64,000 nucleotides of DNA, taken from NCBI RefSeq assembly GCF_001426905.1, contig NZ_LMFQ01000020.1, positions 248,001-312,000 of the forward strand, given 5' to 3'. Position 1 is the stretch's first letter. Each line of letters opens with the position of its first letter. A program made the translations under genes and the position numbers. Under the pieces are notes generated by a model. The model saw only the letters and a list, made by a program, of their open reading frames with translations, made no database searches and was not told the origin of the DNA. This document shows, in pieces, positions 11,708 through 57,550 of this stretch. The DNA comes from Caulobacter sp. Root1455. Lineage in GTDB: Bacteria; Pseudomonadota; Alphaproteobacteria; Caulobacterales; Caulobacteraceae.

Positions 11708-11733
11708 AATTCCAGGAAGCAGGAAGCGTACCG

Positions 11734-14259: not shown

Positions 14260-14262
14260 GCG

Positions 14263-16008
14263 ATGAAGTCCCCGCTCGAATTCCTCCAGCCCCTGGGCCG
14301 CGCCCTGATGCTGCCGATCGCCGTCCTGCCGGTGGCGGGACTGCTGCTGCGGCTGGGCCAGCCGGACCTGCTGAACATCGCCTTCATGGCCGCGGCCGGC
14401 GACGCGATCTTCTCCAACCTGGGCCTGCTGTTCGCCATCGGCGTGGCGGTGGGCTTCGCCAAGGAGAACAACGGCGCGGCGGGTCTGGCGGGCGTGGTCT
14501 GTTTCCTGATCGCCACCGAGGGCGCCAAGGCCCTGTTGCACGTGCCGCCGGACGTCACGGCCGGCCTGATCAAGGCCCATGCGGATCTCGCGTCGGCCGC
14601 CTACAAGGCCAAGGCCCTGGCCAAGCTCAGCGTGCCGATCGGCATCGCTTCTGGTCTTGTAGGGGGAGTGTTCTACAACCGCTTCTCGACCTTCAAGCTG
14701 CCCGAATACCTGGCCTTCTTCAGCGGCCGGCGCTTCGTGCCGATCATCAGCGGCGTGGCCGGTCTGCTGATCGCCGTGCTGATCGGCCTGGGCTATGACG
14801 GGATCAACGGCGCGGTCGACGGGGCCAGCCGGGCCATCGTCGGCTCGGGCGAGCTGGGGCTGCTAGTCTACGGCTTCCTGAACCGGATCCTGATCGTCAC
14901 CGGCCTGCACCACATCCTCAACAACATCGCCTGGTTCGTGATCGGCGACTATCACGGCGCCACCGGCGACCTGCGGCGGTTCTTCGCCGACGACCCCAGC
15001 GCCGGCGGCTTCATGAGCGGCTTCTTCCCGGTGATGATGTTCGGCCTGCCCGCCGCCTGCCTGGCCATGTACCACACGGCCCGTCCGGAGAAGAAAAAGG
15101 CGGTCGGCGGCATGCTGACCTCGCTGGCCCTGACCTCCTTCCTGACCGGCGTGACCGAGCCGATCGAGTTCAGCTTCATGTTCCTGGCCCCGCTGCTCTA
15201 CGCGGTGCACGCGGTGCTGACCGGCGTGGCCATGGCGGCGATGAACGCCCTGGACATCAAGCTGGGCTTCACCTTCTCGGCCGGCCTGTTCGACTACGTC
15301 CTGAACTTCGGCAAGGCGACCCACCCGCTGTGGCTGCTGCCGCTGGGGGCGCTGTACGCCGGCGTCTATTACGGCCTGTTCCGGTTCTTCATCGTCAAGT
15401 TCGACCTGAAGACGCCGGGCCGCGAGACGGACGACGCGATCACCGCCGAGGCCGCCACGACCGGCGGCGGCCGCGGGGCCGACTTCGTTCTGGCGCTCGG
15501 CGGGGCGGCCAACCTGGTGTCGGTCGACGCCTGCACCACCCGCCTGCGCCTGATCGTCGTCGACCAGGGCGCGGTCAGCGAGCCGGCCCTGAAGGCCCTG
15601 GGCGCGCGCGGGGTGGTCAAGCCGTCGGACAAGGCCCTGCAGGTGGTGCTGGGCCCGATCGCGGACGGCGTGGCCGGCGAAATCCGCGCGGCCATGGGTG
15701 CGCCGGCTCCAGCAGCCAAGCCGGTCGCCGTCGCGGTCAAGGCCGCCGCCTTGCCGACCGCCGTCGACGACAGCAGGGCCGAGGCCCTGGTTCTCGCCCT
15801 GGGCGGCTCGACCAATGTCGAGGCGGTGGGGGCCTGCTCCAGCCGCCTGCGTCTGGTGGTCCGCGACAACGCCATCGTCGACGAGGCGGCGCTGGCGGCG
15901 CTGGACTCGCGCGGCGTGGTTCGGGTCGGTGAGCGGTCCGTGCACGTGGTGCTGGGTCCCGACGCCGAGCGAATCTGCGACGCTGTGCGCTGCCTGCTGC
16001 CGGGTTGA
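14263..16008 (+). CDS. nagE: PTS GlcNAc permease, IIC with two IIB domains
   Basis: Inner-membrane permease that imports GlcNAc and phosphorylates it. Residues ~1-380 are a glucose/GlcNAc-type IIC domain (LQPLGRALMLPIAVLPVAGLL, GLHHILNNIAWF, GVTEPIEFSFMFLAPLLYAVHA). Two IIB domains follow: one with phospho-Cys at ~424 (DACTTRLRL), one with Cys at ~525 (GACSSRLRL). Both keep the active Cys. E. coli NagE is IIC-IIB-IIA with a single IIB; here IIA is on the neighbouring fusion protein and IIB is duplicated. The length, 581 aa, reflects this. It overlaps or abuts the next gene. Confidence 0.93.
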   Translation: MKSPLEFLQPLGRALMLPIAVLPVAGLLLRLGQPDLLNIAFMAAAGDAIFSNLGLLFAIGVAVGFAKENNGAAGLAGVVCFLIATEGAKALLHVPPDVTAGLIKAHADLASAAYKAKALAKLSVPIGIASGLVGGVFYNRFSTFKLPEYLAFFSGRRFVPIISGVAGLLIAVLIGLGYDGINGAVDGASRAIVGSGELGLLVYGFLNRILIVTGLHHILNNIAWFVIGDYHGATGDLRRFFADDPSAGGFMSGFFPVMMFGLPAACLAMYHTARPEKKKAVGGMLTSLALTSFLTGVTEPIEFSFMFLAPLLYAVHAVLTGVAMAAMNALDIKLGFTFSAGLFDYVLNFGKATHPLWLLPLGALYAGVYYGLFRFFIVKFDLKTPGRETDDAITAEAATTGGGRGADFVLALGGAANLVSVDACTTRLRLIVVDQGAVSEPALKALGARGVVKPSDKALQVVLGPIADGVAGEIRAAMGAPAPAAKPVAVAVKAAALPTAVDDSRAEALVLALGGSTNVEAVGACSSRLRLVVRDNAIVDEAALAALDSRGVVRVGERSVHVVLGPDAERICDAVRCLLPG

Positions 16009-24867: not shown

Positions 24868-25189
24868 CCCGAACCTTTCGAAGGCTTCAAGAGCGTGGAC
24901 GGTCCGATTTTTAGCTGGGACGGGGCATAGGGTGAAATGCTGAGGCCGGCGTCACGTCGAACCCAGGTTCAGCCCATGGTCGGCGATGCGGGCCGCCCCC
25001 GGCGGGGGCGCGCAAGGCGTCGTGCCTCTCGTCAGTCGGGAAGACCGAGTCCGGCCTGGCGTCTTCGGCCCCGACGCCGCCCGCGAACCGCGTTGATCGG
25101 CGCCATCGGCTGGAGGCCGCCGCGAGGCCTTTGCAGGCAAGCGGATTTCGAGACGGCTACGGCCGTCTACGAACATCTGCAAACAAGGG
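24868..25189. other. Intergenic gap before the island
   Basis: No convincing gene. It contains a perfect 7-bp hairpin at 25151-25168 (AGACGGC, loop TACG, GCCGTCT). Read on the minus strand, this hairpin follows the left att copy, so it may be the old terminator of the tRNA-Ser gene, separated from it when the island inserted. Confidence 0.4.
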
Positions 25190-25206
25190 GGTGGCGGAGA
25201 GGGTGG
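25190..25206. repeat. Left attachment-site copy
   Basis: GGTGGCGGAGAGGGTGG, identical to 45435-45451. It is a fragment of the 3' end of tRNA-Ser with no tRNA body next to it, as expected for the far end of a tRNA-targeted island. Confidence 0.88.
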
Positions 25207-25448: not shown

Positions 25449-28217
25449 ATGAACGCCGTCGAGATCGAAGAAGCCGTATCGGAGCTTGCAAGCGTCTCAT
25501 TCGACGCCGCTGAGTTCCCGTTTGCCTTTCTCGCCGCGTTCGGAAACCGACAAGTGACGGTCCAGCGCTTGCGAGCCGGATCGGGTAACGCTTCGGACGT
25601 CGTGGGTGGTGTCCTCCAACGCAACAACATCCACATGGCAGTGTGCGCGGAAGGCCGAGTGAGCGAAACTCTTTCCGCGCTGCGCACCAGCCCAAAGACA
25701 GCGATCAACAAGGTCAAGTTTATCTTGGCAACTGATGGCGTCATGTTCGAGGCTGAAGAGCTGATGACGGGGGAGGCGCTAGCTTGTGCCTATCCAAAGT
25801 TTTCAGACCATTTCGCGTTTTTCCTGCCCCTGGCAGGGATCTCAACGATCAAGCAAATCAAGGACAATCCGGTCGATATCAAGGCGACCGGGCGCCTGAA
25901 CAAACTCTACATTGAGCTCCTAAAGGACAATCCCGACTGGGCTGGCGCAGAGCGTCGCCACGACCTCAATCACTTTATGGCCCGATTGATTTTCTGCCTG
26001 TTTGCGGAGGACACGGGGATTTTTCTCGGTAACAGCCTGTTCTCCGCGACTGTCGAGCGTATGAGCGACGGTCAATCGAGCAACACCCACGAAGTCATCT
26101 CAGAGCTGTTCCGCTCAATGAACACGAAGCTCGATGAGCGCGCGACATCCAATTTTCGCCCTTGGGCGGACGCGATGCCCTACGTCAACGGCGGTTTGTT
26201 TTCCGGATCGGCCGACTGCCCAAAATTCAGTAAAATCGCGCGATCTTACCTTCTGCGTGCGGCGGCGCTGAACTGGCAGGAGATCAATCCTGACATCTTT
26301 GGCTCCATGATTCAGGCCGTGGCGGACGAGGAGGAGCGCGGAGCCCTCGGAATGCACTACACCAGCGTGCCGAACATCCTGAAGGTACTCAACCCACTAT
26401 TCCTTGATGATCTGCGCGTTCATTTGGAGCAAGCAGGCGACAACGCACGCTCGTTACTCAACTTGCGCAAACGAATTGCAAAAATCCGGGTGTTCGACCC
26501 AGCCTGCGGTTCCGGAAATTTCCTGGTTATTGCCTACAAGCAGATGCGGGCCATTGAAGCGGAGATCAACCGGCGTCGCGGCGAGGCCGACCGACGCACG
26601 GAGATTCGTCTCACCAATTTCCGGGGCATCGAGCTGCGCGACTTCCCGGCCGAAATTGCGCGACTAGCTCTCATCATCGCAGAATACCAATCCGACGTCG
26701 TCTATCGCGGTCAACAGGAAGCCTTGGCCGCGTTTCTGCCGCTGGATACCCAGAACTGGATCACCTGTGGCAATGCCCTAAGGTTGGACTGGCTTAGCCT
26801 TTGGCCGCCTACGGGCACACGGGTCAAACTGCTCGCCAGCGACCTTTTCGAGACGCCGCTCGATCAAGCTCAAATCGATTTTGAAAATGAAGGCGGCGAA
26901 ACCTATATATGCGGAAACCCACCATATCTCGGCAGCAAGTGGCAATCCGACGAACAAAAATCCGATCTCGCGTCCATTTTTGCTCACAGGATCTCAAGCT
27001 GGAAGTCGCTGGACTATGTCGCGGGCTGGTTCATGAAGGCGGCCGATTACGGCAGACACACCGTAGGGGCTACGGCCCTCGTCAGCACGAACTCGATATG
27101 CCAAGGCCAGCTGGTGCCAGTGCTATGGCCGGCCATTTTGGAGACGGGCGCACGAATTCACTTTGCATACAACTCGTTCAAATGGGCAAATCTTGCGAGC
27201 CACAACGCTGTAGTCACGGTGGTAGTGGTTGGTATGACTCACGCCGACATTGACGTCTGCAAGTTGTTTGAAATGCAGCCAGACGGAGAGCTTGTTGAGC
27301 GCCAAGTCGATAACATCAATGCCTACCTTATACCCGCTCCCAACATTGTGATTGACGCTGCGAGGTTGCCGCTCAATTCACTCTCACCAATGGTCTTTGG
27401 TAATATGCCCCGCGACGCGGGTTACCTGCTAATGGATGACGATGAGCGGCGAGAGCTAATCCGAACAAATCCGGCCTCAGGCCAGTACCTCAAGTGGTTT
27501 CAAGGCGCGGATGACTTCATATCTGGCCGGCATCGCGCGTGCGTTTGGGTCGACGAGAAAGGCTTCGCCGAGGCATCGGCGATACCGGAATTGGCGGCGC
27601 GCTTCGACGGGGTGAAGCGTACGCGTTTGGAATCTAACGCCGAGTCCACCCGGTCCTTCGCAGCCAAACCCTATCGCTTCGTGCAGATCCAGGGTGTCGC
27701 ACAACGTAGCGCCATCATCGTTCCTCGCCACTCATCCGAGCGCCGCGAGTATCTCCCAGTGGGATTGATCGACAGCGACGTGATCGTCGCCGATAGCGCT
27801 CTTGCGATCTACGACGCAGAGCTGTGGAACATCGCGATCTTATTGTCGAAGCTTCACCTTATTTGGGTCGCAGCAGTCTGCGGAAAAATCAAAACGGACT
27901 ACCGGTATTCTAATACAATTGGCTGGAATACCTTCCCAGTTCCATTTTTGACTGCTCAGAATCGAGCCGCCCTGACCCTGGCCGCAGAGAATATCCTGCT
28001 GGCGCGTGAGGCGCACTTTCCAGCAACTGTGGGCGAACTCTATGATCCCGACAAGATGCCATCAGACTTGCGCAAAGCCCACGAGGCTAACGACGAGACC
28101 GTGGAGCGAGTCTACATCGGGAGGAAATTCAAGAACGATACTGAGCGTCTAGAGAAGCTATTCCAGATGTATGCAGACAAGAGTACCGGTAAAGTCGTCT
28201 TGGGGAAAACCGCATGA
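25449..28217 (+). CDS. MmeI-like adenine-specific DNA methyltransferase
   Basis: Class I SAM-dependent DNA methyltransferase of 922 aa, probably N6-adenine. Motif I (DPACGSGNF, residues ~350-358) binds SAM and motif IV (NPPY, ~490-493) is catalytic. A helical spacer includes RRHDLNHFMARLIFCLFAEDTGIF and MHYTSVPNILKVLNPLFLDDLR, typical of MmeI-type enzymes. The C-terminal ~400 residues should hold the target-recognition region. I see no PD-(D/E)xK nuclease motif in the first 170 residues, unlike MmeI. First gene of a four-gene unit: its stop overlaps the PLD gene by 4 bases. It probably marks self DNA while partners cut unmarked DNA. Confidence 0.88.
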   Translation: MNAVEIEEAVSELASVSFDAAEFPFAFLAAFGNRQVTVQRLRAGSGNASDVVGGVLQRNNIHMAVCAEGRVSETLSALRTSPKTAINKVKFILATDGVMFEAEELMTGEALACAYPKFSDHFAFFLPLAGISTIKQIKDNPVDIKATGRLNKLYIELLKDNPDWAGAERRHDLNHFMARLIFCLFAEDTGIFLGNSLFSATVERMSDGQSSNTHEVISELFRSMNTKLDERATSNFRPWADAMPYVNGGLFSGSADCPKFSKIARSYLLRAAALNWQEINPDIFGSMIQAVADEEERGALGMHYTSVPNILKVLNPLFLDDLRVHLEQAGDNARSLLNLRKRIAKIRVFDPACGSGNFLVIAYKQMRAIEAEINRRRGEADRRTEIRLTNFRGIELRDFPAEIARLALIIAEYQSDVVYRGQQEALAAFLPLDTQNWITCGNALRLDWLSLWPPTGTRVKLLASDLFETPLDQAQIDFENEGGETYICGNPPYLGSKWQSDEQKSDLASIFAHRISSWKSLDYVAGWFMKAADYGRHTVGATALVSTNSICQGQLVPVLWPAILETGARIHFAYNSFKWANLASHNAVVTVVVVGMTHADIDVCKLFEMQPDGELVERQVDNINAYLIPAPNIVIDAARLPLNSLSPMVFGNMPRDAGYLLMDDDERRELIRTNPASGQYLKWFQGADDFISGRHRACVWVDEKGFAEASAIPELAARFDGVKRTRLESNAESTRSFAAKPYRFVQIQGVAQRSAIIVPRHSSERREYLPVGLIDSDVIVADSALAIYDAELWNIAILLSKLHLIWVAAVCGKIKTDYRYSNTIGWNTFPVPFLTAQNRAALTLAAENILLAREAHFPATVGELYDPDKMPSDLRKAHEANDETVERVYIGRKFKNDTERLEKLFQMYADKSTGKVVLGKTA

Positions 28218-29296
28218 ATGTTGATCATGTTTTGCAGCCAGGGGCTCACTCAACCTTGGAGACACTTAGGGCGTGCGTTGCTGCAAAATTTGCAGATCAG
28301 GCGGATGTCGCGGTAGCCTACATTACATCGAGCGGGCTCCTCAATTTGCTTAACATGTTCGAGCGTGAACTGGACGGTGGCCTGAACAAATTTCCAATAA
28401 GATGGATTACGTCTTTCGACTATAGGCGGACCGACCCTGCATGCTTGAGCCGCCTCCTTGATCTACACGCTGACCGCATTCGCATATTTGGTGGTATTCA
28501 GGCTCTTGGAACGAGCTGCATGCCTAGCGTTCCGTTTCACCCGAAAGTATTTATGTTCAAGGGTGTGGGGCAGCAACGGGTATTGTCCGGCTCCGGAAAT
28601 CTCTCCTATTCCGGCCTTGTGCGGGGTCATGAGGCCGGATTCTTGGTCACGGATGCAAACGGGAAGGCACCGGTCGCTCCGTCAGTTGATGGCTATTTCA
28701 AATGGTTCGACGGCCTTTGGAAAGCGTCTGACACCTTGGATGCCAATCTCCTGGCTCGCTATAAGGTGCAGTACGACAAAAGAGAAAACCTTGAAGCGCC
28801 GGCTTTAACGGACGACGACGTTCTGCCCGCTAGTAAAAGCGCGACTGCGCTTTCTCTGTCAGATCTGATGAAGATTAGGGCCGCTCGCCGTTTGTGGATT
28901 TCAGCGGGTAACATTGGGAAAACCCGTGGAAAAAACGTGCCTGGAAATCAGTTGATGCTGAAGAGAATGACTCGTGTATTCTTTGGTGCGCCGGCAATTG
29001 ACGTTCCAGTTGATACAATGCTGGGGCATTTCGCCATTTCCTACGAAGGTCAAGAATACAAAGATTGTACGTTATATTACAGTAATAATAAAATGGATAA
29101 GTTGACACTCCCCATTCCGGGTGACGGGGGGCCAAATACATATGATCAAGCCGTGATATTGTTGGAACGCGTGCAGCCGGATAGGATTCATCTCACCTTA
29201 GCAAACGCCGGCGACAAGGCACGCTGGACAAGCAAAAGCAAAGCTATTGGTGGATACTTCGAAATGAATGGCGGCCGTGATTGGGGGGTTTTTTGA
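28214..29296 (+). CDS. Phospholipase-D-family nuclease-like protein
   Basis: 360-aa protein with one HKD-type motif: HPKVFMFKG, then GSGNLSYSG about residues 115-137, and a conserved EAGFLV segment after it. Single-HKD proteins of this kind usually dimerise to form a nuclease site. The Asp of HxKx4D is not present at the usual spacing. The N-terminal half (VAVAYITSSGLLNLL, FPIRWITSFDYRRTDP) matches the PLD fold. Its ATG overlaps the methyltransferase stop (ATGA), so the two are coupled. The likely role is DNA cleavage in the cassette. Confidence 0.8.
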   Translation: MNVDHVLQPGAHSTLETLRACVAAKFADQADVAVAYITSSGLLNLLNMFERELDGGLNKFPIRWITSFDYRRTDPACLSRLLDLHADRIRIFGGIQALGTSCMPSVPFHPKVFMFKGVGQQRVLSGSGNLSYSGLVRGHEAGFLVTDANGKAPVAPSVDGYFKWFDGLWKASDTLDANLLARYKVQYDKRENLEAPALTDDDVLPASKSATALSLSDLMKIRAARRLWISAGNIGKTRGKNVPGNQLMLKRMTRVFFGAPAIDVPVDTMLGHFAISYEGQEYKDCTLYYSNNKMDKLTLPIPGDGGPNTYDQAVILLERVQPDRIHLTLANAGDKARWTSKSKAIGGYFEMNGGRDWGVF

Positions 29297-29327
29297 TGGT
29301 CGATTTGAACTTTGAAGAGCGCTGCTC

Positions 29328-31388
29328 GTGACGACAGCTAAGCCCATCCCTGCGGTCGCCTTCACTGCCGGCCGCACCGGGGCCTCGACGAAGGCCAATG
29401 AGCTGGGCATGCGTGCCATGCAAGAGCGGGCCTATGACAGGCGGGGTGAGCAGTATCTGCTTATCAAGTCGCCGCCGGCGTCGGGCAAGTCGCGAGCGCT
29501 AATGTTCATCGCTCTGGACAAGCTTCACAACCAAGGCGTCCACAAGGCCATCATTGTAGTGCCCGAACGCTCGATTGGCGGCAGCTTCGCTGACGAGCCA
29601 CTCGCCACCTATGGCTTCTATTGGGACTGGACGGTCCAGCCCCAATGGAACCTTTGTAATGCGCCCGGCATCGATGAACCGCGCGTCGCCAAGTCGAAAG
29701 TCAAAGCAGTGGGTGAGTTTCTCGCGAGCGCGGACCCTATTTTGGTCTGCACGCACGCGACATTCCGTTTCGCGGTTGATGAACTGGGCGTTGAGGCATT
29801 CGATAACTGCCTAATCGCAGTGGACGAATTCCATCATGTCAGTGCCAACCCGGACAACCGGCTGGGCGCGCAACTTGCGCAGTTTATCAGCCGCGACAAG
29901 GCGCACATTGTGGCGATGACTGGCTCGTATTTTCGAGGTGACGCCGAGGCAGTTCTAAGCCCCGGTGACGAGGCGCGGTTCGTGACTGTGACTTATACCT
30001 ACCACGAGCAACTCAACGGCTACGATCATCTTAAGACATTGGATATAAGTTACTTCTTCTATTCGGGAAGTTACCTTGACAGCATCATGAAGGTCTTGGA
30101 TGCCGACTTAAAGACAATCGTCCACATTCCGAACGTCAACTCTCGGGAGAGCACCGCCGACAAGATCAAGGAAGCCAACGAGATCATGAGCGCCCTCGGT
30201 GATTGGGAGGGCGAGGACCCCGTGACCGGCTTTCATCTCATCCGCCGGGCGGATGGGCGCCTGCTGAAGGTGGCTGACCTTGTGGATGATGACAGCGCTA
30301 GGCGGGATCGGGTTATCAGCGCGTTGAAGAACCCAATGCATCGGGCCGACCGCGACCATGTGGATATCGTCATCGCCTTGGGTATGGCCAAGGAGGGGTT
30401 CGACTGGATTTGGTGCGAGCACGCCCTGACCGTTGGCTATCGCTCCAGCCTAACTGAGATCATTCAAATTATTGGCCGTGCCACCCGTGACGCGCCGGGT
30501 AAGGCGGTGGCGAGGTTCACAAACCTGATAGCCGAGCCCGATGCCAGTCAGGAGCTGGTGGTCGATGCGTTGAATGACACGTTGAAAGCCATCGCGGCCA
30601 GCCTACTCATGGAACAGGTCTTGGCTCCGCGCTTTGACTTCACCCCTAAAGATCTCGGCCCCAAAGAGGGCTTCGACTATGGACCTGACGGCTATCACGA
30701 AGGTGGTGCTAACGTCGGAGTCAACGAAGCGACTGGCCAGATTCACATGGAAATCAAGGGGTTAGTTGCGCCAAAAAGTCTTGAGGCGAAGCGCATCTGC
30801 CAGGAAGATCTAAACGAGATCATCACTGCCTTCGTGCAGGACAAGACCATTGTTGAACGAGGTATTTTCGACGACGAGACGGCGCCGCAGGAGTTGACCC
30901 AACTGCGTATGGGCAAGATCGTGAGGGACCGCTTCCCCGAACTGAGCGACGAGGATCAAGAGGCCGTACGTCAACACGCTATTGCCGCGCTGAATCTAAC
31001 GCAGAAGGCCAACGCGGTGGCAGGTGGAGTGGGGAATGACGAGCTGAGGGGGAGCACCGCTTTCGTCGATGGTGTGCGCAAGTTTGCTCTCAGCGTGCGC
31101 GAGCTAGACATCGACCTAATCGATGGGATTAATCCTTTTGAGGCGGCCTATGCGGTGCTAGCCAAATCGATGAACGAACAGATGCTCAAGCAAGTCGAAG
31201 TGGCCATCGCTGGCAAGCGTGCCGGCATCCCGCTGGAAGAGGCGCGGGATCTGGCGCTTCGCGCGCGGAAGTTCAAACAGGAGCGCGGCCGGCTACCGGA
31301 TATCAAGTCACAAGACGCCTGGGAACAGCGTATGGCCGAAGGCGTGGCTGTCCTCGCTCGCCACGTGGCACAGTCCGCCAATGGCTGA
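29328..31388 (+). CDS. SF2 DEAD/DEAH-like helicase
   Basis: 686-aa superfamily 2 ATPase. Walker A is SPPASGKSR (~residues 47-55), motif II is VDEFHHV (~165-171), motif III is MTGSYF and motif VI is IIGRATRD (~residue 380). The C-terminal ~250 residues are of unknown type. It starts with GTG 29328, with GAAGAG eight bases upstream. A tiny frame (ATG 29296 to TGA 29331, 11 codons) overlaps both the PLD stop and this GTG and may pass ribosomes along. It is likely the motor of the restriction-like cassette, as Res subunits are in Type I/III systems. Confidence 0.87.
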   Translation: MTTAKPIPAVAFTAGRTGASTKANELGMRAMQERAYDRRGEQYLLIKSPPASGKSRALMFIALDKLHNQGVHKAIIVVPERSIGGSFADEPLATYGFYWDWTVQPQWNLCNAPGIDEPRVAKSKVKAVGEFLASADPILVCTHATFRFAVDELGVEAFDNCLIAVDEFHHVSANPDNRLGAQLAQFISRDKAHIVAMTGSYFRGDAEAVLSPGDEARFVTVTYTYHEQLNGYDHLKTLDISYFFYSGSYLDSIMKVLDADLKTIVHIPNVNSRESTADKIKEANEIMSALGDWEGEDPVTGFHLIRRADGRLLKVADLVDDDSARRDRVISALKNPMHRADRDHVDIVIALGMAKEGFDWIWCEHALTVGYRSSLTEIIQIIGRATRDAPGKAVARFTNLIAEPDASQELVVDALNDTLKAIAASLLMEQVLAPRFDFTPKDLGPKEGFDYGPDGYHEGGANVGVNEATGQIHMEIKGLVAPKSLEAKRICQEDLNEIITAFVQDKTIVERGIFDDETAPQELTQLRMGKIVRDRFPELSDEDQEAVRQHAIAALNLTQKANAVAGGVGNDELRGSTAFVDGVRKFALSVRELDIDLIDGINPFEAAYAVLAKSMNEQMLKQVEVAIAGKRAGIPLEEARDLALRARKFKQERGRLPDIKSQDAWEQRMAEGVAVLARHVAQSANG

Positions 31389-32574
31389 GCTAAGTGATCG
31401 TGAGCTACTCGAAGAGCTCGGCGTCGCCGTCGAAACCAAGGCGGTTGCGATCAGAACGCCGCGCGAGGAACGGATCATCGCGGGCTTCGAGGACATCTTG
31501 AAATTCGTCGATAAACACGGCCGCGCTCCGCAGCCTACTGAGGACCGGGATATTTTTGAGCGGCTTTGTGCCGTCCGACTTGAGCGCATACGTGCCCAGG
31601 CCGATTGCCAACAGTTGGTTGCCCACTTGGATACACACGGCCTACTCTCTGGAGGTGTCGGCGTTGCGGAAGGCCAGGCCGAATTTAAAGATGATGCGAG
31701 CTTACTCGCGGAACTCGGCGTCGTTCCGCCCGCCGAGGTGGACATCACGGTTCTGAGGCATGTTAAGTCACGTGACGAAGTCCGCGCCGCAGAGGAGATC
31801 GCCCAACGCGAACGCTGCGAGGATTTCGATCAGTTCAAGCCACTGTTCGATCAGATGCAGGCTGAGTTGGCGGCCGGCGTCAGAGAGGCGCGTGAGTTCG
31901 GTCGCGATCCGAGTGTGGCCCAGGGCGACTTCTTCATTCTCAGTGGGCAGGTCGTTTACGTCGCCGACATGGGCGAGGCCATCAAGGCGCCCAATGGAGA
32001 ATCAGACGCGCGCTTACGTGTCATTTTCGCCAACGGAACCCAAAGCAACCTTCTACGGCGGTCGCTGCAACGGGCGCTCTACAAGGACGAGACTGGCCGG
32101 CGAATTACGGTGCCGTCGGCCGGCCCGCTCTTCGGCGCGTCAAGCGAGGGCGAAGACCTCGAGAGCGGCACGATTTATGTTCTACGAAGCAAATCTAACC
32201 ATCCAGATGTTGCCGCCCACCGGAACCTAATCCACAAGATTGGGGTAACCGGCGGCTCCGTCGAAACTCGGATTTCGCAGGCAGTGAACGACGCCACGTA
32301 TCTACTGGCGGAGGTCGAAATAGTGGCGACCTACAAGCTGTTCAATATTAATCGCGGCAAGCTAGAGAACTTGCTTCATCGGGTGTTCGCGCCAGCTCGG
32401 ATCGACCTCACAATAGAGGATCGCTTCGGTCGAGCCGTGCAACCGAAAGAGTGGTATCTAGTCCCCCTGGCAGCTATTGATGAGGCGGTTGCGAAGGTAA
32501 GGGATGGGTCGATTACTCAATTTACCTACGATCCGACATCCGCAACATTGATCGGAAATGTCGCCAATACGTAA
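31381..32574 (+). CDS. GIY-YIG nuclease-domain protein
   Basis: 397-aa protein. The C-terminal third has a GIY-YIG fold of the T5orf172/MUG113 kind: TIYVLRS (~residues 264-270), HKIGVTGGSVETRI (~285) with the expected Arg, and KLENLLHRVFA with the expected Glu. The N-terminal ~250 residues are helical with no family I can name. The ATG at 31381 overlaps the helicase stop by 8 bases and begins MAELSDRELLEELGV. The longer open frame upstream shadows the helicase. As last gene of the cassette it gives a second candidate nuclease besides PLD. Confidence 0.82.
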   Translation: MAELSDRELLEELGVAVETKAVAIRTPREERIIAGFEDILKFVDKHGRAPQPTEDRDIFERLCAVRLERIRAQADCQQLVAHLDTHGLLSGGVGVAEGQAEFKDDASLLAELGVVPPAEVDITVLRHVKSRDEVRAAEEIAQRERCEDFDQFKPLFDQMQAELAAGVREAREFGRDPSVAQGDFFILSGQVVYVADMGEAIKAPNGESDARLRVIFANGTQSNLLRRSLQRALYKDETGRRITVPSAGPLFGASSEGEDLESGTIYVLRSKSNHPDVAAHRNLIHKIGVTGGSVETRISQAVNDATYLLAEVEIVATYKLFNINRGKLENLLHRVFAPARIDLTIEDRFGRAVQPKEWYLVPLAAIDEAVAKVRDGSITQFTYDPTSATLIGNVANT

Positions 32575-32630: not shown

Positions 32631-33824
32631 TTATTTAAGAGTGAGATCCGGGGCTTCTCCCCCCTCGCGCGCCAACGAGCCATCCGGCAGGCCGCAAAAT
32701 CTCTCAATTATGCGCGGGCTCAGCGCAAGGTCGGCCAGTATCTCGTCCGGATGAACCCTGCCACCATCCAAGATAAGCTCCATTGCTCGGCGCATTAGTT
32801 TAGGTTGCTCGATCGCAATTTGCCTCGGATCGTCAAGTGGCTCCTTAGTGCGCCACTTCCGAAAGGACAGTTGCTTATACAGGTTGGTAAACTGGTTTTC
32901 GTCGATGACGCCCAGATCGCTAGATCTATAGATCATCGCCTGGACAGAAACGCGCCACCGCCTTTTAAGCTCTAAGAACGCATCCAATCGAATGGAATAT
33001 ACTTCGCTAGGGAAAGAGCGTCGCGGCAGCAAAAACGCACCCGCAAAGCGATCTGCCTCGCGCTCAATGATCTTAAGGGTTTTGGGGTCGGCGATCTCTT
33101 CGGCTTCAATCCAACGATGAAGGATTAGGTGACCCAGTTCGTGGGCGAGATCGAACCTCACACGCGCGCCGGACTCCTTCTCAGCGGCCATAAACACGAA
33201 GGGACGATCGCCATTCCAAAATGAGAAGGCGTCGATGCGCTCGCCCTCGATCTCATAACGGCAGAGCGCCACGCCCTTGCTCTCGATCAATGCTGCAACA
33301 TTGGAGATAGGACCCAAGCCAAGGCCCCATTGGCGACGGCAATCCTCAGCGATCGCTTCAATTTCGTCTTCGGAGTAGCGACCGGATGGGTCGGCCGGCG
33401 CCGCTTGCGGAATATCTACGGCAGGATAGTTGACGAAGCCGTCGAGGTAGCGCGCGGTCTGAGCGAACCAAGTGGTCAGGACCGCACAAGCTTCATTTCG
33501 GCGAAGAGTGTCAGGCCCGACCTTTCGAAAAAAGCGGACGCTGTAGCGGCCAAAGTCAGGCGCGTCCTCAGCGGTGAAGAATGCCGGCGGCTGACCAAGG
33601 GCCTCGCAGATCTTCGCGAACGTATCGCTTTCGGGGGATTTGTCCCCTCGTTCATAAGCCGAAACCGATTGCCGAGTAACGCCGATGCGCTCGGCAAGTT
33701 CGGTCTGCGTCAGCCGCACCGCCCGGCGCCCGTCCTGAAGGCGCGACGGAATCAATCGCCGCCCGGCTGTGAGAGCGCGGGCGGCGGCGGGGAACGCGAT
33801 AATGTTGTCAGGCGTCGTTGGCAT
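32631..33824 (-). CDS. Xre-family regulator with ImmA/IrrE metallopeptidase domain
   Basis: 397-aa fusion. Residues ~25-80 are a Cro/C1 helix-turn-helix (RRAVRLTQTELAERIGVTRQSVSAYERG). The middle carries a zinc-peptidase motif HELGH (~228-232) in RVRFDLAHELGHLILHRW, then a helical C-terminus. Such COG2856 proteins control mobile elements by cleaving a repressor, or belong to toxin-antitoxin-like units. It is convergent with the defence cassette, with 56 bases between stops. Its ATG overlaps the 3' end of the upstream gene by 17 bases, so the two form one unit. Confidence 0.85.
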   Translation of the reverse strand: MPTTPDNIIAFPAAARALTAGRRLIPSRLQDGRRAVRLTQTELAERIGVTRQSVSAYERGDKSPESDTFAKICEALGQPPAFFTAEDAPDFGRYSVRFFRKVGPDTLRRNEACAVLTTWFAQTARYLDGFVNYPAVDIPQAAPADPSGRYSEDEIEAIAEDCRRQWGLGLGPISNVAALIESKGVALCRYEIEGERIDAFSFWNGDRPFVFMAAEKESGARVRFDLAHELGHLILHRWIEAEEIADPKTLKIIEREADRFAGAFLLPRRSFPSEVYSIRLDAFLELKRRWRVSVQAMIYRSSDLGVIDENQFTNLYKQLSFRKWRTKEPLDDPRQIAIEQPKLMRRAMELILDGGRVHPDEILADLALSPRIIERFCGLPDGSLAREGGEAPDLTLK

Positions 33825-34452
33825 TGTCCCTACGCCACTTATCGATCTCTTCCTTCAGTGTCATCACCGCTTCGACGTCCGTATCCTCGATGGGATACAA
33901 AGGCGCGGCGACTTCATGCGGCATCTGCATCAAGTTCGGCGTCCGGTACAAATAACCCTTCGCATGGTCCTCGTTCGGCAAGCCTAGATGCGCAAAGTTC
34001 AGATCCTGATGACCATGGACCAGGAGGATGTGCGGGACGCCCAGCGTTTCGACCTTGCCAGATGGATCGGGAAGTCCCTTCAGCCAGCCTTGGTTCCTCA
34101 GCCGCCGGTTAGCACGAAACCGAACGTCGCGTGGTTGCTTTTCGGGCTCGGCCACCTGACTCACGGTGACAACCGAGTGCGACAATAGAACTTCGAGATA
34201 TTGGCCGGTCGGCTTCTCGAAATACCGCCACCGAAAGTCCGCATCCCACTGGCCGCTCTGGATCAGCCCAGCCAGGCCGTAATCGACTGCCCATTGCACA
34301 ATCCGCCCACGCTGAACGCTCGGCACTTTGAGGAACGGGGTGTCGTCTATGTGAGCGGCAGCGGCGGCGTAAGCCGTCTTAAGCGCCGTGGGTATCAAGG
34401 CCCGCCGGCTCGGCGGCACCTGGTCAAAAAGAAATGCTTCAGCCTGATCCAC
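33808..34452 (-). CDS. Unknown protein paired with Xre-ImmA gene
   Basis: 214-aa soluble protein that I do not recognise. It has a basic central stretch (RFRANRRLRNQGWLKGLPDP) and ends DKWRRDNANDA. It is the first gene of a two-gene unit with the Xre-ImmA protein, and the genes overlap by 17 bases. Unknown partners of COG2856 proteins are often toxins or the target of the peptidase, so either role is possible here. Several Trp and aromatic positions suggest a folded domain, not a disordered chain. Confidence 0.6.
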   Translation of the reverse strand: MDQAEAFLFDQVPPSRRALIPTALKTAYAAAAAHIDDTPFLKVPSVQRGRIVQWAVDYGLAGLIQSGQWDADFRWRYFEKPTGQYLEVLLSHSVVTVSQVAEPEKQPRDVRFRANRRLRNQGWLKGLPDPSGKVETLGVPHILLVHGHQDLNFAHLGLPNEDHAKGYLYRTPNLMQMPHEVAAPLYPIEDTDVEAVMTLKEEIDKWRRDNANDA

Positions 34453-35575: not shown

Positions 35576-36277
35576 TCATGACGCGCTCAGGGAGTCCACG
35601 CTGATCAGACAGCGCTTTGCGCCCTTGGCCTTTTGAGCGGCAGCTACGCACCGAGCCAGCACATCACGGTTTTGCTCGACGATCCGCCGCGCGGTTTGTA
35701 TCTCCTGCCAACGCTGCGGGTCAGCGACAGCCAGCAGTCGCTCACCAGCCGGCCACATATCGCGGTGAAGCACGCGGGCCGCCCTCCTCTCGAGCCAAGC
35801 CCATTGTTCTGGAGCCGCCTGCGCAACGATGACTGGAAAGCTCGCGCCGAGAACCGCGCCGCCGACCACACCGGCCAACGCCGCCTGCAAAAGCCGCCAG
35901 TTCTGCACGCTGGCCAATCGCGCGGTATCGACCCAGCCGCGAAGATCGCCGGCCGCTCGTTGAAGCATCTCCTGGGCCTGATGCAACGTCGCGCGGTCCT
36001 GTCGCCGGGCCTCATCACCGGCCGCCGCAATCTGCTGCGCGATCTCAGCGGGCGTAGCCGCCAACGCCGGACTCGTCGCCAACTTCCCTATCCGCCCAAC
36101 CGCGACCCTCACGCCTTGAGCGATCTCGCCCAGCGTCTCGCTGTAATCTGGGACCGATGCTCGTTCGGCGGCGAGCCCTGCCAGAGCGACATTCAACAAG
36201 GCCACTTCCCGCCGCAACGCCTCGAACGCCACCGCCGCCGGATCTACCGGCGCTTCTGATCCGATATCCTGATCCAT
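35576..36277 (-). CDS. DUF6118-like membrane-anchored protein, traA-linked
   Basis: 233-aa protein. The N-terminal half is coiled-coil-like (FEALRREVALLNVALAGLAAERA). One hydrophobic segment follows (NWRLLQAALAGVVGGAVLGASFPVIVA), then a charged domain (ARRVLHRDMWPAGERLLAVADPQRWQEI). I recognise this as the DUF6118 type often found next to TraA relaxase genes. It lies 15 bases after traA and is probably in its operon. It may tie the transfer machinery to the membrane. Confidence 0.65.
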   Translation of the reverse strand: MDQDIGSEAPVDPAAVAFEALRREVALLNVALAGLAAERASVPDYSETLGEIAQGVRVAVGRIGKLATSPALAATPAEIAQQIAAAGDEARRQDRATLHQAQEMLQRAAGDLRGWVDTARLASVQNWRLLQAALAGVVGGAVLGASFPVIVAQAAPEQWAWLERRAARVLHRDMWPAGERLLAVADPQRWQEIQTARRIVEQNRDVLARCVAAAQKAKGAKRCLISVDSLSAS

Positions 36278-36292
36278 CCCAACCTCCTGCTT

Positions 36293-39166
36293 TCAGATGC
36301 CAAGTCCTCGGCCGCGCCCGATGCCGAGGTAGTCCGAGAGTCCCTGGCCGACGCTGCGCCCCATCTCGGCCGGGAGCCATAGCTCGGGCCTGCGGGCGCG
36401 CAGCAGCGACTCCACCTGCGGGTCGCGCTCCAGGCTCTTGGCCATCGCGCCCATGCGGTCCTGGACCTGGCCGGCCCCGGTCATGTCGCCCGCGCGATGC
36501 AGGGCTGAGCGCTGGCGCTCCAGGCCCTGCCAGCGCTCGACGAAGCGGTCGGCGCGCAGACGCGGATCTGCCCTGACCTCGGCCTCAAGCTGAAGGACGC
36601 GGATCGCTCGCTGAGTGCGCCCCGACGCAGTCTCCCCGGCCAAGCCTGGATCGCGGACGTAGGCCCGCTCCAGATCCTTGGCGGCGTACCGACCGATCTT
36701 CCCCACGGCCTCGCGCGCCTGCTCCAGGGCCTGCCGCTGATGAGCGAGCACCGGCAAGCCGCGGTCGTTCATACGCATGACGTCGGCCGCGGCGCGCGCG
36801 TGGCGCTCGATCACCCGGCTCTGAACAACCTGATCGTCATCACGCGCCGGCGCCGTCGGTTGATGCGGGGGGCTGGCCGGGCGGAATCCGGCGAACATCC
36901 CGCGCTCGCGTTGCGGCGGCTCCTTGGGCCGCATCGACGCCGGCACATGAATGTCGCGCCGCTCGGCGAAGTCGCTGGCCATGTCCTTGGCCTGCTCGCG
37001 CGACAGCACGCGGGTCAGCTTGCCGAAATCCTCGAACTCGTCGCGGCCATAGTGAACCTGCAGGCTGTCACGATGCCGCGACAGGGCGACATAGGCGCCG
37101 TGGCGATCCATCCCCGGCGTCGCCAGCACATGGGTCCGATCGACCGTGACGCCCTGGCTCTTATGGATGGTGGCCGCGTAGCCGTGATCGACCTGGGCGT
37201 AATCCTTCAGGTCGAAGGCGACCGAGCGCCCTGCGTCGGGACGCCCGGCGTCGAGACGCACGGTTATGTGGGTGGCCGATACCTGCTCGATCTCACCGAG
37301 CATGCCGTTCTTCACCCCCAGCCCGCGATCGTTCTTCAGGAACATCAGCCGATCGCCGGCCGCGAATGCGCGCTCGCCGCGCTCGGCCTTGACCGTCACG
37401 TCCTCGCCCAAGGCGCCGGCCTGGCGCAGCCGCTCGCGGGCCGTCAGGTTGAGATCGCGCACCTCGTCATTGGTGTGGGTCAGGATGATCCGGCTCTTGC
37501 CGGGCTCGGCCACGCGGTCGCGATCCCAACGCTCGACCAAATCCTCCCGCGCCTTGTCGCGGGTCTCGGCGGCGTGGACCATGCCACGCGCCTCGTAAGA
37601 TGCCAGCGCCTCGCCCGTCCGACCGGTGGCCAGATGCCGCGTGGCGTCGCGCTGCCAGTCCTCATGCTGCCGCCGAACCTGAGTGATCTCGACGTGAGAA
37701 TGACGCTCGGCGATCGACCGGAACGCCGCTCCGGCCTCGATGGCCTGAAGCTGCTCGGGATCGCCGACCAACACCACCTTCGCCCCGGCCTTCTCGGCCG
37801 CCGACAACAGCCGCTCCATCTGTCGCGAACCAATCATCCCGGCCTCGTCGATCACCAGCACGTCGCGGGCGTCGAGCAGCTCGCGCCCCTGGCTCCACTG
37901 ATGCTCCAGGCTGGCGATTGTGCGGGACGCGATGCCAGAGCCGCCCTCCAGGTTCTCGGCGGCGATACCCGCCAGCGCCAAGCCCTGAACGCGATAGCCG
38001 GCGTCTTCCCAGGCCTCCCGCGCCACGCCAAGAAGCGCCGACTTGCCGGTGCCGGCGTAGCCGACCACCACGCCCAGATCGCGGGCCTGGGTGACATGCT
38101 CAAACGCGGCCTTCTGCTCGCCAGAGAGGACGAGACCGCGCTGCTCCGCGAGCGCCAAAGCGCGGCGCTGATCCAGTTCGCTGACCCGATGCGCCCGACG
38201 CTCGGCCATCACGGCGGCGGCGCGGTGCAGGCGGTCCTCGACCGCGATCATCTCGCGGCTGGTGAACCGATCCTGGCCGCGTCCGTCCTGGCCCAAGGCC
38301 ACCAGCTCGGGCGAGGCCTGCACGGCGCCCATGGCCCGGTCGAACTGCTCCTTCCCATCCGAATGACGGTGCATGAACATCGCCAGGTCACGGCGGGTGA
38401 AGGTGGCTTGCTGCTTGGTGATGGCGTCTAGGGCAATGCGAGGATCGGCGATGATCCGCTCGCCATTGGCCCGTGCGATCTCGTGGTGTTCGTCGAGCCG
38501 ATCGGCCTCCAGGCCCTCGTCGGCCCTGCGCCCGGCGGCCGGGCCGATCTTGTTCTGCGGCTCAAGCTCGATGCCCTGGTGTTCCAGGCTGCGGTGATCG
38601 ATCCGCGCGTCGATGTCGATCTGCGCCAGCCGCTCATTGACGTGATCGGCCCAGGCCTCGCGCCAATGCTCGACCAGTTCGGTACGGTTCCAGTTGCGGA
38701 CCTTGGCGCCGAACCCGTCGTCGCCGACCTCGCGCATCGACAACATAACGTGGGCATGGGGCTTGGCCAGGCCATCGGGGCCGATATCCCAATGCACATT
38801 GAGATCGGCGACCATCCCGCGATCGACCATCTCGCGCTGGACGAAGTCGCGGGCCAGCTCGATGCCTTGGGCCTGGTCCATCTCGCGGGGGATGGCGAAC
38901 TCGACCTCGCGGGAGAGCTGGGCGTCCTTGCGCTTCTCGCCGGCCTCGACGGTGTTCCACAGTGTCGCGCGGTCGGTCAGATGGTCGGGCGCGCCGTCCG
39001 GCAGCATCACTTCGGAATGGACGACGCCGCTTTTGTTGGTGAAGTCGTGATCGCGATCCAACCGCTCGTCGTGCAGCCGCGAGGCGGAGCGATAGGCGGC
39101 CGAGGCCACGGCGCTGGCCCCGGTGGCGCGGCTGATGACTTTGACGGAGAAGTGGAAGATCGCCAT
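36293..39166 (-). CDS. traA: Ti-type conjugative relaxase/helicase TraA
   Basis: 957-aa relaxase that should nick oriT and unwind the transferred strand. The MobA/MobL domain covers residues ~1-240 (MAIFHFSVKVISRATGASAV, AKPHAHVMLSMREV with the HxH metal motif). A RecD-like helicase follows: Walker A GYAGTGKSAL (~370-378), motif II VIDEAGMI, and DHGYAATIHKSQGVT. The ATG at 39166 is the family start; the open frame begins 13 codons earlier. It is divergent from traC across an oriT-like site. This is the arrangement of Ti plasmids, but no TraG or Trb genes are in the island. Confidence 0.93.
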   Translation of the reverse strand: MAIFHFSVKVISRATGASAVASAAYRSASRLHDERLDRDHDFTNKSGVVHSEVMLPDGAPDHLTDRATLWNTVEAGEKRKDAQLSREVEFAIPREMDQAQGIELARDFVQREMVDRGMVADLNVHWDIGPDGLAKPHAHVMLSMREVGDDGFGAKVRNWNRTELVEHWREAWADHVNERLAQIDIDARIDHRSLEHQGIELEPQNKIGPAAGRRADEGLEADRLDEHHEIARANGERIIADPRIALDAITKQQATFTRRDLAMFMHRHSDGKEQFDRAMGAVQASPELVALGQDGRGQDRFTSREMIAVEDRLHRAAAVMAERRAHRVSELDQRRALALAEQRGLVLSGEQKAAFEHVTQARDLGVVVGYAGTGKSALLGVAREAWEDAGYRVQGLALAGIAAENLEGGSGIASRTIASLEHQWSQGRELLDARDVLVIDEAGMIGSRQMERLLSAAEKAGAKVVLVGDPEQLQAIEAGAAFRSIAERHSHVEITQVRRQHEDWQRDATRHLATGRTGEALASYEARGMVHAAETRDKAREDLVERWDRDRVAEPGKSRIILTHTNDEVRDLNLTARERLRQAGALGEDVTVKAERGERAFAAGDRLMFLKNDRGLGVKNGMLGEIEQVSATHITVRLDAGRPDAGRSVAFDLKDYAQVDHGYAATIHKSQGVTVDRTHVLATPGMDRHGAYVALSRHRDSLQVHYGRDEFEDFGKLTRVLSREQAKDMASDFAERRDIHVPASMRPKEPPQRERGMFAGFRPASPPHQPTAPARDDDQVVQSRVIERHARAAADVMRMNDRGLPVLAHQRQALEQAREAVGKIGRYAAKDLERAYVRDPGLAGETASGRTQRAIRVLQLEAEVRADPRLRADRFVERWQGLERQRSALHRAGDMTGAGQVQDRMGAMAKSLERDPQVESLLRARRPELWLPAEMGRSVGQGLSDYLGIGRGRGLGI

Positions 39167-39189
39167 GGCGACAGACCACTTACTATCCT

Positions 39190-39230
39190 GAGCGCACGTC
39201 GGCACGACGTATAAGCGCGCCCTCCAAGAT
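39190..39230. other. Putative Q-type oriT
   Basis: A 6-bp perfect inverted repeat (ACGTCG, GCA, CGACGT; 39196-39210) is followed by ATAAGCGCGCCCTCC (39211-39225). The latter resembles the nic core of IncQ and Ti-type origins, TAAGTGCG/CCCTC, as I recall it. The site sits between the divergent traA and traC genes, where oriT lies in Ti plasmids. Nicking, after 39219 by analogy, is inferred. Confidence 0.65.
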
Positions 39231-45289: not shown

Positions 45290-45290
45290 T

Positions 45291-45315
45291 TTGTCCCACA
45301 CTTCGTCCCACAAAT
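45291..45315 (+). repeat. Tandem GTCCCACA repeats, possible integrase arm sites
   Basis: GTCCCACA occurs at 45293-45300 and 45305-45312, twelve bases apart, just upstream of the integrase ATG. The second sits in TTCGTCCCACAAAT, also present at 25266-25279 near the other island end. Confidence 0.5.
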
Positions 45316-45434
45316 GAGACTCGGAGCGTGTTGGATCGCGTGAGACGTGTCGAAACACGTTTTCGCGATTATCCCTTATGGCTCAGGGATTTGCGGGACG
45401 CCCGGGGGCGTTCTGGCACTGACTGGGATGGGGT

Positions 45435-45526
<92 letters not shown>

Positions 45527-49057: not shown

Positions 49058-49153
49058 GGCGTCTTCACGGCTCCGTCATGGCTATGTCGTATCGGGGACA
49101 TCGCCCGCGCCTAACGGCTCAGGTTCAAGCCTAGCGTCCGAAGGGGATAGTCG

Positions 49154-51664: not shown

Positions 51665-51672
51665 GGCTCCGT

Positions 51673-51741
51673 CGGGGACACGCACTCATACTCGACGCCC
51701 TGCGATTAGGGCGCGGATCGTGGGATGAGTGCGTGTCCCCG
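51673..51741. repeat. Large inverted-repeat element between convergent genes
   Basis: 17-bp perfect arms (51673-51689 with 51725-51741, GGGGACACGCACTCAT type) enclose a second, smaller stem CGCCC/GGGCG. It lies between the TonB receptor stop and the ferritin-like gene stop, so it could act as a bidirectional terminator. It resembles dispersed palindromic elements seen in Caulobacterales. Confidence 0.65.
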
Positions 51742-57507: not shown

Positions 57508-57550
57508 GACGCCGTCTCCGTTAGAACGGAGTTATAACATTTTCTGGCCG

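What the first reader, a model, noticed from the sequence alone, without database searches (positions are those of the whole stretch)
25449..32574. Four-gene methyltransferase-PLD-helicase-GIY-YIG cassette: possible unnamed anti-phage system
Four genes overlap or nearly abut (4-base, mini-ORF-bridged and 8-base junctions), so they are one translational unit. They combine an MmeI-like DNA methyltransferase without a visible nuclease motif, a PLD-type nuclease, an SF2 helicase and a GIY-YIG nuclease. This is what a restriction system needs: marking, motor and two cutters. Gene content differs from DISARM (no DUF1998 DrmB), BREX (no PglZ/BrxL) and Type I/III restriction (no HsdS/HsdR or Mod/Res pair). 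It is carried on a mobilisable island beside other defence-like units.
Basis: partly seen in the sequence, partly recalled or inferred. Interest (0 to 1): 0.88.

Follow-up and report, generated by a model that had tools for sequence, protein, structure and literature searches.

The report
Modular restriction operon with swappable cargo
This is a bacterial DNA-marking and DNA-cutting gene set of an already described but poorly understood kind, here carrying an extra nuclease in a slot where related sets carry other defence-like genes, and its relatives appear to exchange their target-reading part while the cutting machinery stays the same.

Summary
The four ORFs and junctions are real, but they are not one unnamed four-gene system. 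Three (MmeI-like methyltransferase, SF2 helicase, GIY-YIG nuclease) have the architecture published as DnmA-YeeB-YeeC. The helicase-GIY junction is never interrupted (0 of 131 loci), but the methyltransferase-helicase junction holds over 200 bp in 59 of 125. That slot carries alternative, mostly same-strand, tightly coupled genes: YhcG, RhuM, GmrSD, PDDEXK_4, Schlafen/AlbA, Fic, toxin-antitoxins. The PLD gene is one of them (4 of 126 slots, window included): a predicted BfiI/NgoAVII-like nuclease (PLD plus B3-like domain), also found in a DISARM locus. The methyltransferase's N-terminal nuclease motif is lost. In locus pairs with helicases at least 95% identical, methyltransferase residues 511-810 are only 30-55% identical in 24 of 25 pairs, against medians of 96% (helicase) and 94% (GIY-YIG). 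Hence the restriction subunits probably take their specificity from the methyltransferase, as in Type I/ISP restriction. The cassette opens a 20.2-kb tRNA-Ser element whose empty site is seen in a congener. New variant of a known kind; restriction activity is unproven, and the B. subtilis homologue showed none.

The parts
25190..25206 (.). left attachment repeat of the integrated element (17 bp)
   Evidence: exact repeat of 45435-45451; 0 of 200 first-order Markov sequences gave a 17-mer match; empty site in a congener
25449..28217 (+). MmeI/DnmA-type DNA methyltransferase; N-terminal nuclease domain lacking D-x9-E-x-K; motif I DPACGSGNF at residues 350-358, GNPPY at 489-493; variable block about residues 480-820
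28214..29296 (+). embedded accessory nuclease: N-terminal PLD (HPK 109-111, GSGN 126-129) and predicted C-terminal B3-like domain
29296..29331 (+). 11-codon mini-ORF bridging PLD stop and helicase start; not conserved, probably only a translational bridge
29328..31388 (+). YeeB-type SF2 helicase/ATPase (Walker A PPASGKS 49-55, DEFHH 166-170, TGS 198-200, QIIGRATR 380-387)
31381..32574 (+). YeeC-type T5orf172/GIY-YIG nuclease with N-terminal helical and middle beta regions
45435..45451 (.). right attachment repeat, at the 3' end of tRNA-Ser(cga)

Best explanation
The core (methyltransferase, helicase, GIY-YIG nuclease) is a DnmA-YeeB-YeeC-type, ATP-dependent restriction-modification system. The MmeI-like protein reads a short, probably asymmetric site and methylates an adenine on one strand (inferred by homology). 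Its N-terminal nuclease domain has lost its active site but diverges in step with the helicase, so it has probably become the dock for helicase and GIY-YIG protein (inferred). On DNA with unmethylated sites the helicase moves or slides from the bound methyltransferase and the GIY-YIG nuclease cuts, probably when two oppositely oriented complexes meet, as in Type ISP and Type III enzymes (inferred). Sequence specificity of both activities resides in the methyltransferase's variable block (shown only indirectly, by that block's independence from helicase and nuclease). The PLD protein is not a core part. It is one of many accessory genes carried between methyltransferase and helicase in tight coupling, and most likely works as a second nuclease with its own B3-like DNA reader, catching phages that evade the core (inferred).
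For: Of 134 helicase loci, the MTase was found upstream in 125 and the GIY gene downstream in 131, both in 123; eight of the nine lacking an MTase have 1042 bp or less of upstream sequence and in the ninth (L163) an IS5 copy interrupts it; two of the three lacking GIY end there, while L059 has 3909 bp without it (the count looked for this order only). Helicase-GIY gap over 200 bp in 0 of 131; MTase-helicase gap over 200 bp in 59 of 125; thinned to helicases under 95% identical, 46 of 98 against 0 of 98. Slot ORFs of 120 aa or more: 70 of 74 on the operon strand; first cargo start within 60 bp of the MTase stop in 49 of 52 loci, median -3, like the 4-base overlap here. Nearest core relative (Caulobacter MAG L020, helicase 89%) has a PDDEXK_4 nuclease instead of the PLD protein; Vreelandella L090 has PLD+RhuM where Halomonas L095 (helicase 97%) has RhuM alone. 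D-x9-E-x-K absent in 12 of 12 DnmA-type proteins, present in 13 of 14 other MmeI_N proteins. For 25 pairs with helicase >=95% identical: medians GIY 94%, MTase N-terminus 95%, catalytic domain 75%, TRD 38%, C-terminus 92%; block 511-810 under 0.6 in 24 of 25, the exception being near-identical whole loci. Helicase identity correlates with MTase 1-450 at r=0.90 and with the block at r=0.22. Literature: Vibrio deletions sensitise to some phages (PMC9973331, passage, second-hand).
Against: In B. subtilis, deletions of dnmA, yeeB or yeeC did not change sensitivity to three phages, and deletion of dnmA did not change plasmid transformation (PMC9973331 and PMC7261158, passages); the authors call it a relic with an orphan methyltransferase. 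No experiment on this cassette. Docking, translocation and collision are inferred. The PLD/B3 model is of moderate confidence (pLDDT 68.9, pTM 0.49), with low whole-chain TM-scores (0.28-0.37 for the query). Foldseek gave no match at E<=0.001 for the GIY-YIG protein. The GIY protein itself diverges faster than the helicase (median 0.81 at helicase 0.90-0.95 and 0.72 at 0.85-0.90; 0.79 in two pairs above 0.95), so the contrast with the block is sharp only among close pairs. Slot occupancy was counted mostly on close relatives of the window's helicase. Pairs in the identity analysis are not independent.
Confidence: 0.68

Rival explanations
1. A four-gene system in which the PLD-B3 protein is the true restriction nuclease and the helicase its motor, as in CglI/NgoAVII (PLD+B3 nuclease with SF2 ATPase), with the GIY-YIG protein helping.
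For: The PLD model matches BfiI, SauUSI and NgoAVII; CglI pairs a PLD+B3 nuclease with a DEAD-family ATPase (PMC5737866, passages); the PLD gene lies directly before the helicase.
Confidence: 0.12
2. The core is a defunct restriction system kept for gene regulation by methylation; the embedded genes are hitchhikers.
For: B. subtilis results (PMC7261158, PMC9973331, passages).
Against: Helicase and GIY-YIG motif residues are conserved in at least 97% of 126 and 122 relatives; the set is found on plasmids (264 records with a helicase match, 152 of them over at least 80% of its length); the Vibrio deletion phenotype (second-hand).
Confidence: 0.12
3. The variable MTase block reflects fast drift of a tolerant domain, not exchange of specificity.
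For: TRD identity is low in all helicase-identity bands; no clear case of a very similar block between distant cores was found (the 20 of 36 pairs printed have block 0.65-0.73 at helicase 0.67-0.72, no more than the rest of the protein).
Against: The drop begins and ends within about 60 residues on either side, and block identity is nearly uncorrelated with helicase identity above 0.6 (r=0.08, against 0.77 for residues 1-450).
Confidence: 0.15

Closest known systems
DnmA-YeeB-YeeC cluster of Bacillus subtilis and homologues (suggested Type I-like R-M)
   Same: MmeI-like MTase without nuclease motif, SF2 helicase, T5orf172/GIY-YIG protein, in that order, in mobile or defence-like surroundings (PMC9973331, PMC7261158, passages)
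   Different: Here a PLD-B3 nuclease is embedded between MTase and helicase; in B. subtilis yeeB and yeeC are described as immediately downstream of dnmA
Type IIL MmeI
   Same: MTase, TRD and C-terminal domains; PDB 5hr4 matched at 4.1e-186 with the family profile
   Different: Nuclease motif (MmeI D70, E80, K82 per PMC4833311, passage) lost; separate helicase and nuclease genes
Type ISP restriction enzymes (LlaGI, LlaBIII)
   Same: Gamma-MTase with asymmetric site plus translocase plus nuclease (PMC3874165, passages)
   Different: ISP is one polypeptide with an Mrr-like nuclease; here three polypeptides with a GIY-YIG nuclease
BfiI, NgoAVII/CglI PLD restriction endonucleases
   Same: PLD domain followed by a predicted B3-like domain
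DISARM
   Same: A PLD protein of this family follows the MTase in a DISARM locus of Methylocystis annotated with DrmD, DrmA and a DUF1998 protein ('class 1' by recall); PADLOC DrmC and DrmMI models match the window's PLD and MTase proteins weakly
   Different: No DrmA or DUF1998 DrmB among the window ORFs scanned
Embedded defence genes in Type I R-M (e.g. DarTG2 between hsdS and hsdR, PMC12255303, passages)
   Same: Other defence genes inside an R-M operon; Moraxella plasmid L166 has a DUF4433 plus macro-domain pair in this slot
   Different: Host operon here is the DnmA type. Only the two inner junctions were examined systematically; one PLD copy lies after the GIY gene (L078)

Membership tests
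DnmA-YeeB-YeeC cluster | MmeI-type MTase without the N-terminal nuclease motif | tested here: met
   five MmeI Pfam domains; motif absent
DnmA-YeeB-YeeC cluster | SF2 helicase then T5orf172/GIY-YIG gene downstream, same strand | tested here: met
   same in relatives incl. Bacillota plasmids L162 and L165
DnmA-YeeB-YeeC cluster | direct sequence homology to the B. subtilis proteins | not tested
   B. subtilis proteins not compared; only the MmeI_N model rings in the B. subtilis control genome
Type IIL/IIG (MmeI) | PD-(D/E)XK nuclease in the same polypeptide | tested here: not met
Type I R-M | separate HsdS specificity subunit | tested here: not met
   no HsdS domain in the four proteins; recognition domain lies within the MTase
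Type I-like logic | restriction subunits take specificity from the MTase | tested here: inconclusive
   indirect; needs bench test
Type ISP | single polypeptide with nuclease, translocase, MTase, TRD | tested here: not met
   separate genes
CglI/NgoAVII | PLD plus B3-like nuclease | tested here: met
   fold comparison of a moderate-confidence model
DISARM | DrmA helicase and DUF1998 DrmB | tested here: not met
   no such match among the window ORFs scanned (not every ORF of the window was scanned)
BREX | PglZ and BrxL with PglX | tested here: not met
   only weak PglX similarity of the MTase among the ORFs scanned
RosmerTA (neighbour, not part of the finding) | RmrA and RmrT pair | tested here: met
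   RmrA 1.7e-190, RmrT 2.4e-92; the system name is recalled

The most novel reading that the evidence does not exclude
DnmA-type systems are a two-socket defence platform: a specificity block exchanged inside the methyltransferase, and an effector slot behind it whose varied nucleases and toxins (PLD-B3, PDDEXK_4, YhcG, GmrSD, RhuM, Fic and others) are not independent systems but alternative effectors recruited to, or triggered by, the same recognition and translocation complex.
Probability: 0.17. Interest if true: 0.75.

Novelty: new variant of a known kind. Interest (0 to 1): 0.5.

Why it matters
The function of DnmA-YeeB-YeeC is disputed: the B. subtilis copy looks inert, a Vibrio copy reportedly protects. 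The analysis gives a testable role for each part: specificity in MTase residues about 480-820, the dead nuclease domain as a dock, the helicase and GIY-YIG protein as a general cutter. It also points to natural sets of near-identical motors with different target readers, suited to asking how one-strand methylation protects newly replicated host DNA, a problem stated for MmeI enzymes in PMC3874165 (passage). The accessory slot is a further place to look for defence genes: 10 of 20 slot representatives had no Pfam match at 0.01, and of the four of these that were also scanned with PADLOC three matched nothing there.

Tried and rejected
Idea that residues D50-x9-N60-x-H62 are a degenerate MmeI motif: rejected, since the alignment with intact MmeI_N proteins places the catalytic aspartate at Q57 instead. 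Idea that the mini-ORF is the true helicase N-terminus by frameshift: rejected, not conserved (by eye). Solved-structure searches for the helicase gave nothing useful (four matches up to E 1, none better than 0.3; none up to 0.1). GIY-YIG fold search: no match at E<=0.001; the top rows were translation factors eIF5A/EF-P, taken as a small beta-barrel likeness in the middle region. PLD model against viral structures: one match at E<=0.001, a NucT-like nuclease. Search for block exchange between distant cores found no clear donor. The empty/occupied label needs 32 changes on a 118-locus FastTree helicase tree; shuffled labels need 39.0 on average (minimum 32 in 200), so there is slight phylogenetic inertia. 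Of 126 loci with slot information 8 were not in that tree: five whose helicase was not aligned over 85% in one stretch and three identical duplicates. Contexts of the two distant PLD matches L102 and L103 were not examined. PADLOC was run on proteins, not as a system finder; DefenseFinder was not available.

Literature: ten searches. I saw passages of PMC9973331, PMC7261158, PMC12255303, PMC4833311, PMC3874165 and PMC5737866, and the abstract and outline of PMC9973331; all others only as search listings. Not held: Morgan 2009, known to me here only through PMC7261158 and PMC9973331. Not seen: the preprint by Payne and colleagues on embedded defences (cited in PMC12255303) and Piel 2021 (cited in PMC9973331), so earlier mention of this slot cannot be excluded.
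Full report
Observation. Searches confirm four same-strand genes at 25449-28217, 28214-29296, 29328-31388 and 31381-32574, with a 4-base overlap, a mini-ORF bridge and an 8-base overlap. Pfam and PADLOC identify an MmeI-type methyltransferase (five MmeI domains), a weakly scoring PLD protein, a weakly scoring SF2 helicase and a T5orf172/MUG113 (GIY-YIG) protein. I scanned proteins with PADLOC's models, not its system rules; the methyltransferase matches a Type IIG model over its whole length, the other three match defence models only weakly.

Known relatives. A plasmid annotation of the helicase as YeeB led to the B. subtilis literature. PMC7261158 and PMC9973331 (passages) describe DnmA (YeeA), an MmeI homologue without a nuclease motif, with YeeB (helicase) and YeeC (T5orf172/GIY-YIG) immediately downstream, conserved across genomes and suggested earlier to be Type I-like. 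In B. subtilis it did not restrict three phages or plasmid uptake; PMC9973331 reports, citing Piel 2021, that deletions in Vibrio crassostreae raised sensitivity to some phages. The 'unnamed' claim is therefore not right for the core. I did not compare the window's proteins directly with the B. subtilis ones; the MmeI_N model rings in the B. subtilis control genome.

How widespread.

Gene order. Over 134 loci with a helicase (80 genome contigs, 24 viral, 17 class sample refetched with longer flanks, 13 plasmid; L001-L019 and L100-L109 left out as the window's own, short pieces or PLD-only hits, and L110, L135, L137 without a usable helicase), the methyltransferase was found upstream in 125 and the GIY gene downstream in 131, both in 123. 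The script looked for this order only; but of the loci lacking a gene, all except L163 (methyltransferase interrupted by IS5) and L059 (3909 bp downstream without a GIY gene) have at most 1042 bp on the side concerned. The helicase-GIY gap never exceeded 200 bp (0 of 131). The methyltransferase-helicase gap did in 59 of 125; among loci with all three genes, 39 of 75 genome contigs, 7 of 19 viral, 9 of 17 class sample, 3 of 12 plasmids. Thinned to helicases under 95% identical: 46 of 98 against 0 of 98 (115 of the 123 loci were in that alignment). Two sets of records had identical helicases: L058 with L112 and L131, and L091 with L144.

Cargo. With the window added, 58 of 126 loci hold at least one ORF of 75 aa or more in the slot: 86 ORFs in 38 similarity clusters, small ones doubtful. 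Twenty representatives were scanned with Pfam: matches include YhcG/DUF1016, RhuM, GmrSD N-domain, PDDEXK_4, Schlafen/AlbA_2, Fic, PIN, NucS, CcdA and a T5orf172 below cut-off; 10 of 20 gave no match at 0.01, L073's PLD relative among them. PADLOC, run on 10 of the 20, matched candidate families PDC-S02, S05, S26, S67 and HEC-05 among others, and nothing for four. A Moraxella plasmid slot holds a RelB/YafQ pair and a DUF4433 plus macro-domain pair, which I take, from recall, for DarTG; DarTG2 inside a Type I operon is published (PMC12255303, passages). Cargo is knitted in: 70 of 74 ORFs of 120 aa or more are on the operon strand; the first starts within 60 bp of the methyltransferase stop in 49 of 52 loci, median -3, and the last ends within 100 bp of the helicase match in 42 of 52. 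On a helicase tree of 118 loci the state empty/occupied changes at least 32 times and 33 states change at least 51 times.

The PLD gene as cargo. Its family occurs in the slot in the window, L073, L090 and L111, after the GIY gene in L078, and in a Methylocystis plasmid directly after the methyltransferase of a DISARM locus. In 72,556 plasmid records only 3 matched, and in 398 genomes of the phylum 9, the window's own and eight weak ones (5.9e-7 to 4.1e-4). Vreelandella L090 and Halomonas L095 have helicases 97% identical; L090 has PLD then RhuM, L095 only RhuM. The window's nearest core, Caulobacter L020 (helicase 89%), carries a PDDEXK_4 nuclease instead; its methyltransferase is 0.80 identical over residues 1-450 and 0.39 over 511-810. 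The AlphaFold model (pLDDT 68.9, pTM 0.49) has Foldseek matches at E<=0.001 to BfiI, SauUSI (two chains), NgoAVII and the BfiI C-terminal recognition domain, with EcoRII-N and plant B3 domains below that; a family profile matches SauUSI at 6.9e-16 and BfiI at 0.0016, over the PLD part. So it is probably a nuclease with its own B3-like DNA reader.

The dead nuclease domain. MmeI_N was sought in 190 class genomes: 32 matches, 30 loci held, 27 with an alignable methyltransferase ORF (L186, L190, L193 dropped). Twelve align as DnmA-type (L172-L183, the window's own L182 included) and none has D-x9-E-x-K; of the other 14, 13 have it (all but L191), aligned at the place of MmeI residues D70, E80, K82 given in PMC4833311. 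L192 is a fragment that ends before the motif and is not counted. The DnmA-type was judged from the alignment; nine of the twelve have the helicase match downstream on the same contig, L179 has a GIY gene beside it, and for L172 and L176 this could not be seen.

Variable block. In 25 locus pairs with helicases at least 95% identical, medians are helicase 0.96, GIY 0.94, methyltransferase N-terminus 0.95, catalytic domain 0.75, TRD 0.38, C-terminus 0.92. A profile over 31 pairs (24 loci, helicase at least 93%) shows 0.83-1.00 to residue 450, 0.73 and 0.63 in the next two stretches of 30, 0.21-0.59 between 511 and 810, and 0.80-0.93 after that, with helicase not under 0.90 and GIY not under 0.86 in any stretch. 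Block identity is under 0.6 in 24 of 25 pairs; the exception, L128 with L133, is a near-identical pair of loci. Helicase identity correlates with residues 1-450 (r 0.90; 0.77 above helicase 0.6) but hardly with the block (0.22; 0.08). The simplest reading is that recognition changes without change in motor or nuclease, so these take their specificity from the methyltransferase. Against it: pairs are not independent; the GIY protein also diverges faster than the helicase in wider comparisons (0.72 at helicase 0.85-0.90); and I found no donor of a nearly identical block in a distant core, so fast drift is not excluded.

Mechanism. Shown by sequence: intact methyltransferase, SF2 ATPase and GIY-YIG motifs, conserved over 107, 126 and 122 other proteins; lost nuclease motif; fixed core order; variable slot; variable block. 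Inferred: one-strand m6A, docking through the dead domain, ATP-driven movement, cutting on collision of two complexes, and PLD-B3 as an added, independent cutter. PMC3874165 (passages) argues that MmeI-type enzymes need pairs of opposed sites and says that Type ISP enzymes cut on head-to-head sites after translocation.

Setting. The cassette opens an element of about 20.2 kb: a 17-bp repeat at 25190 and 45435 (tRNA-Ser 3' end; 0 of 200 Markov sequences gave such a match), integrase 43979-45358, MobA/MobL-RecD relaxase 36293-39205, RmrA/RmrT 32631-34452. In a congener (G745) the two outer flanks lie together with a 22-base overlap, the empty site; the left match is short (88 columns, window 25121-25206, 80%), the right one 1175 columns at 86%.

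Verdict. A real operon of a known, functionally unsettled kind, with a new view of its modular build. Interest 0.5.

Noticed in passing
25190-45451: Complete integrated element at tRNA-Ser(cga) with a 17-bp attachment repeat; empty site in a same-genus genome (G745:C1 about 489862).
   Followed up: yes
32631-33824 and 33808-34452 (-): RosmerTA-like pair (RmrA 1.7e-190, RmrT 2.4e-92) directly beside the cassette, overlapping genes.
   Followed up: partly
36293-39205 (-): MobA/MobL relaxase fused to a RecD-like helicase; DUF6118 protein next to it at 35576-36277.
   Followed up: partly
L110:1768-17657: Methylocystis plasmid DISARM locus with a PLD protein of this family straight after the methyltransferase: the same kind of accessory nuclease shared by two defence systems.
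   Followed up: partly
L166:4268-6618: Moraxella plasmid: RelB/YafQ pair and DUF4433 plus macro-domain pair (DarTG-like, by recall) inside the methyltransferase-helicase slot.
   Followed up: no
L070:9121-9990, L038:8798-9969, L009:553-1494, L030:3775-4314, L077:8268-9564, L092:9159-9989: Slot genes with no Pfam match at E 0.01; those from L070 and L038 also have no PADLOC match (the others were not scanned with PADLOC): candidate new defence genes.
   Followed up: no
window 11704-14580 (-), 49082-51685 (-), 56090-59224 (+): Long ORFs without Pfam match at 0.001; on high-GC DNA such ORFs may be shadow ORFs.
   Followed up: no
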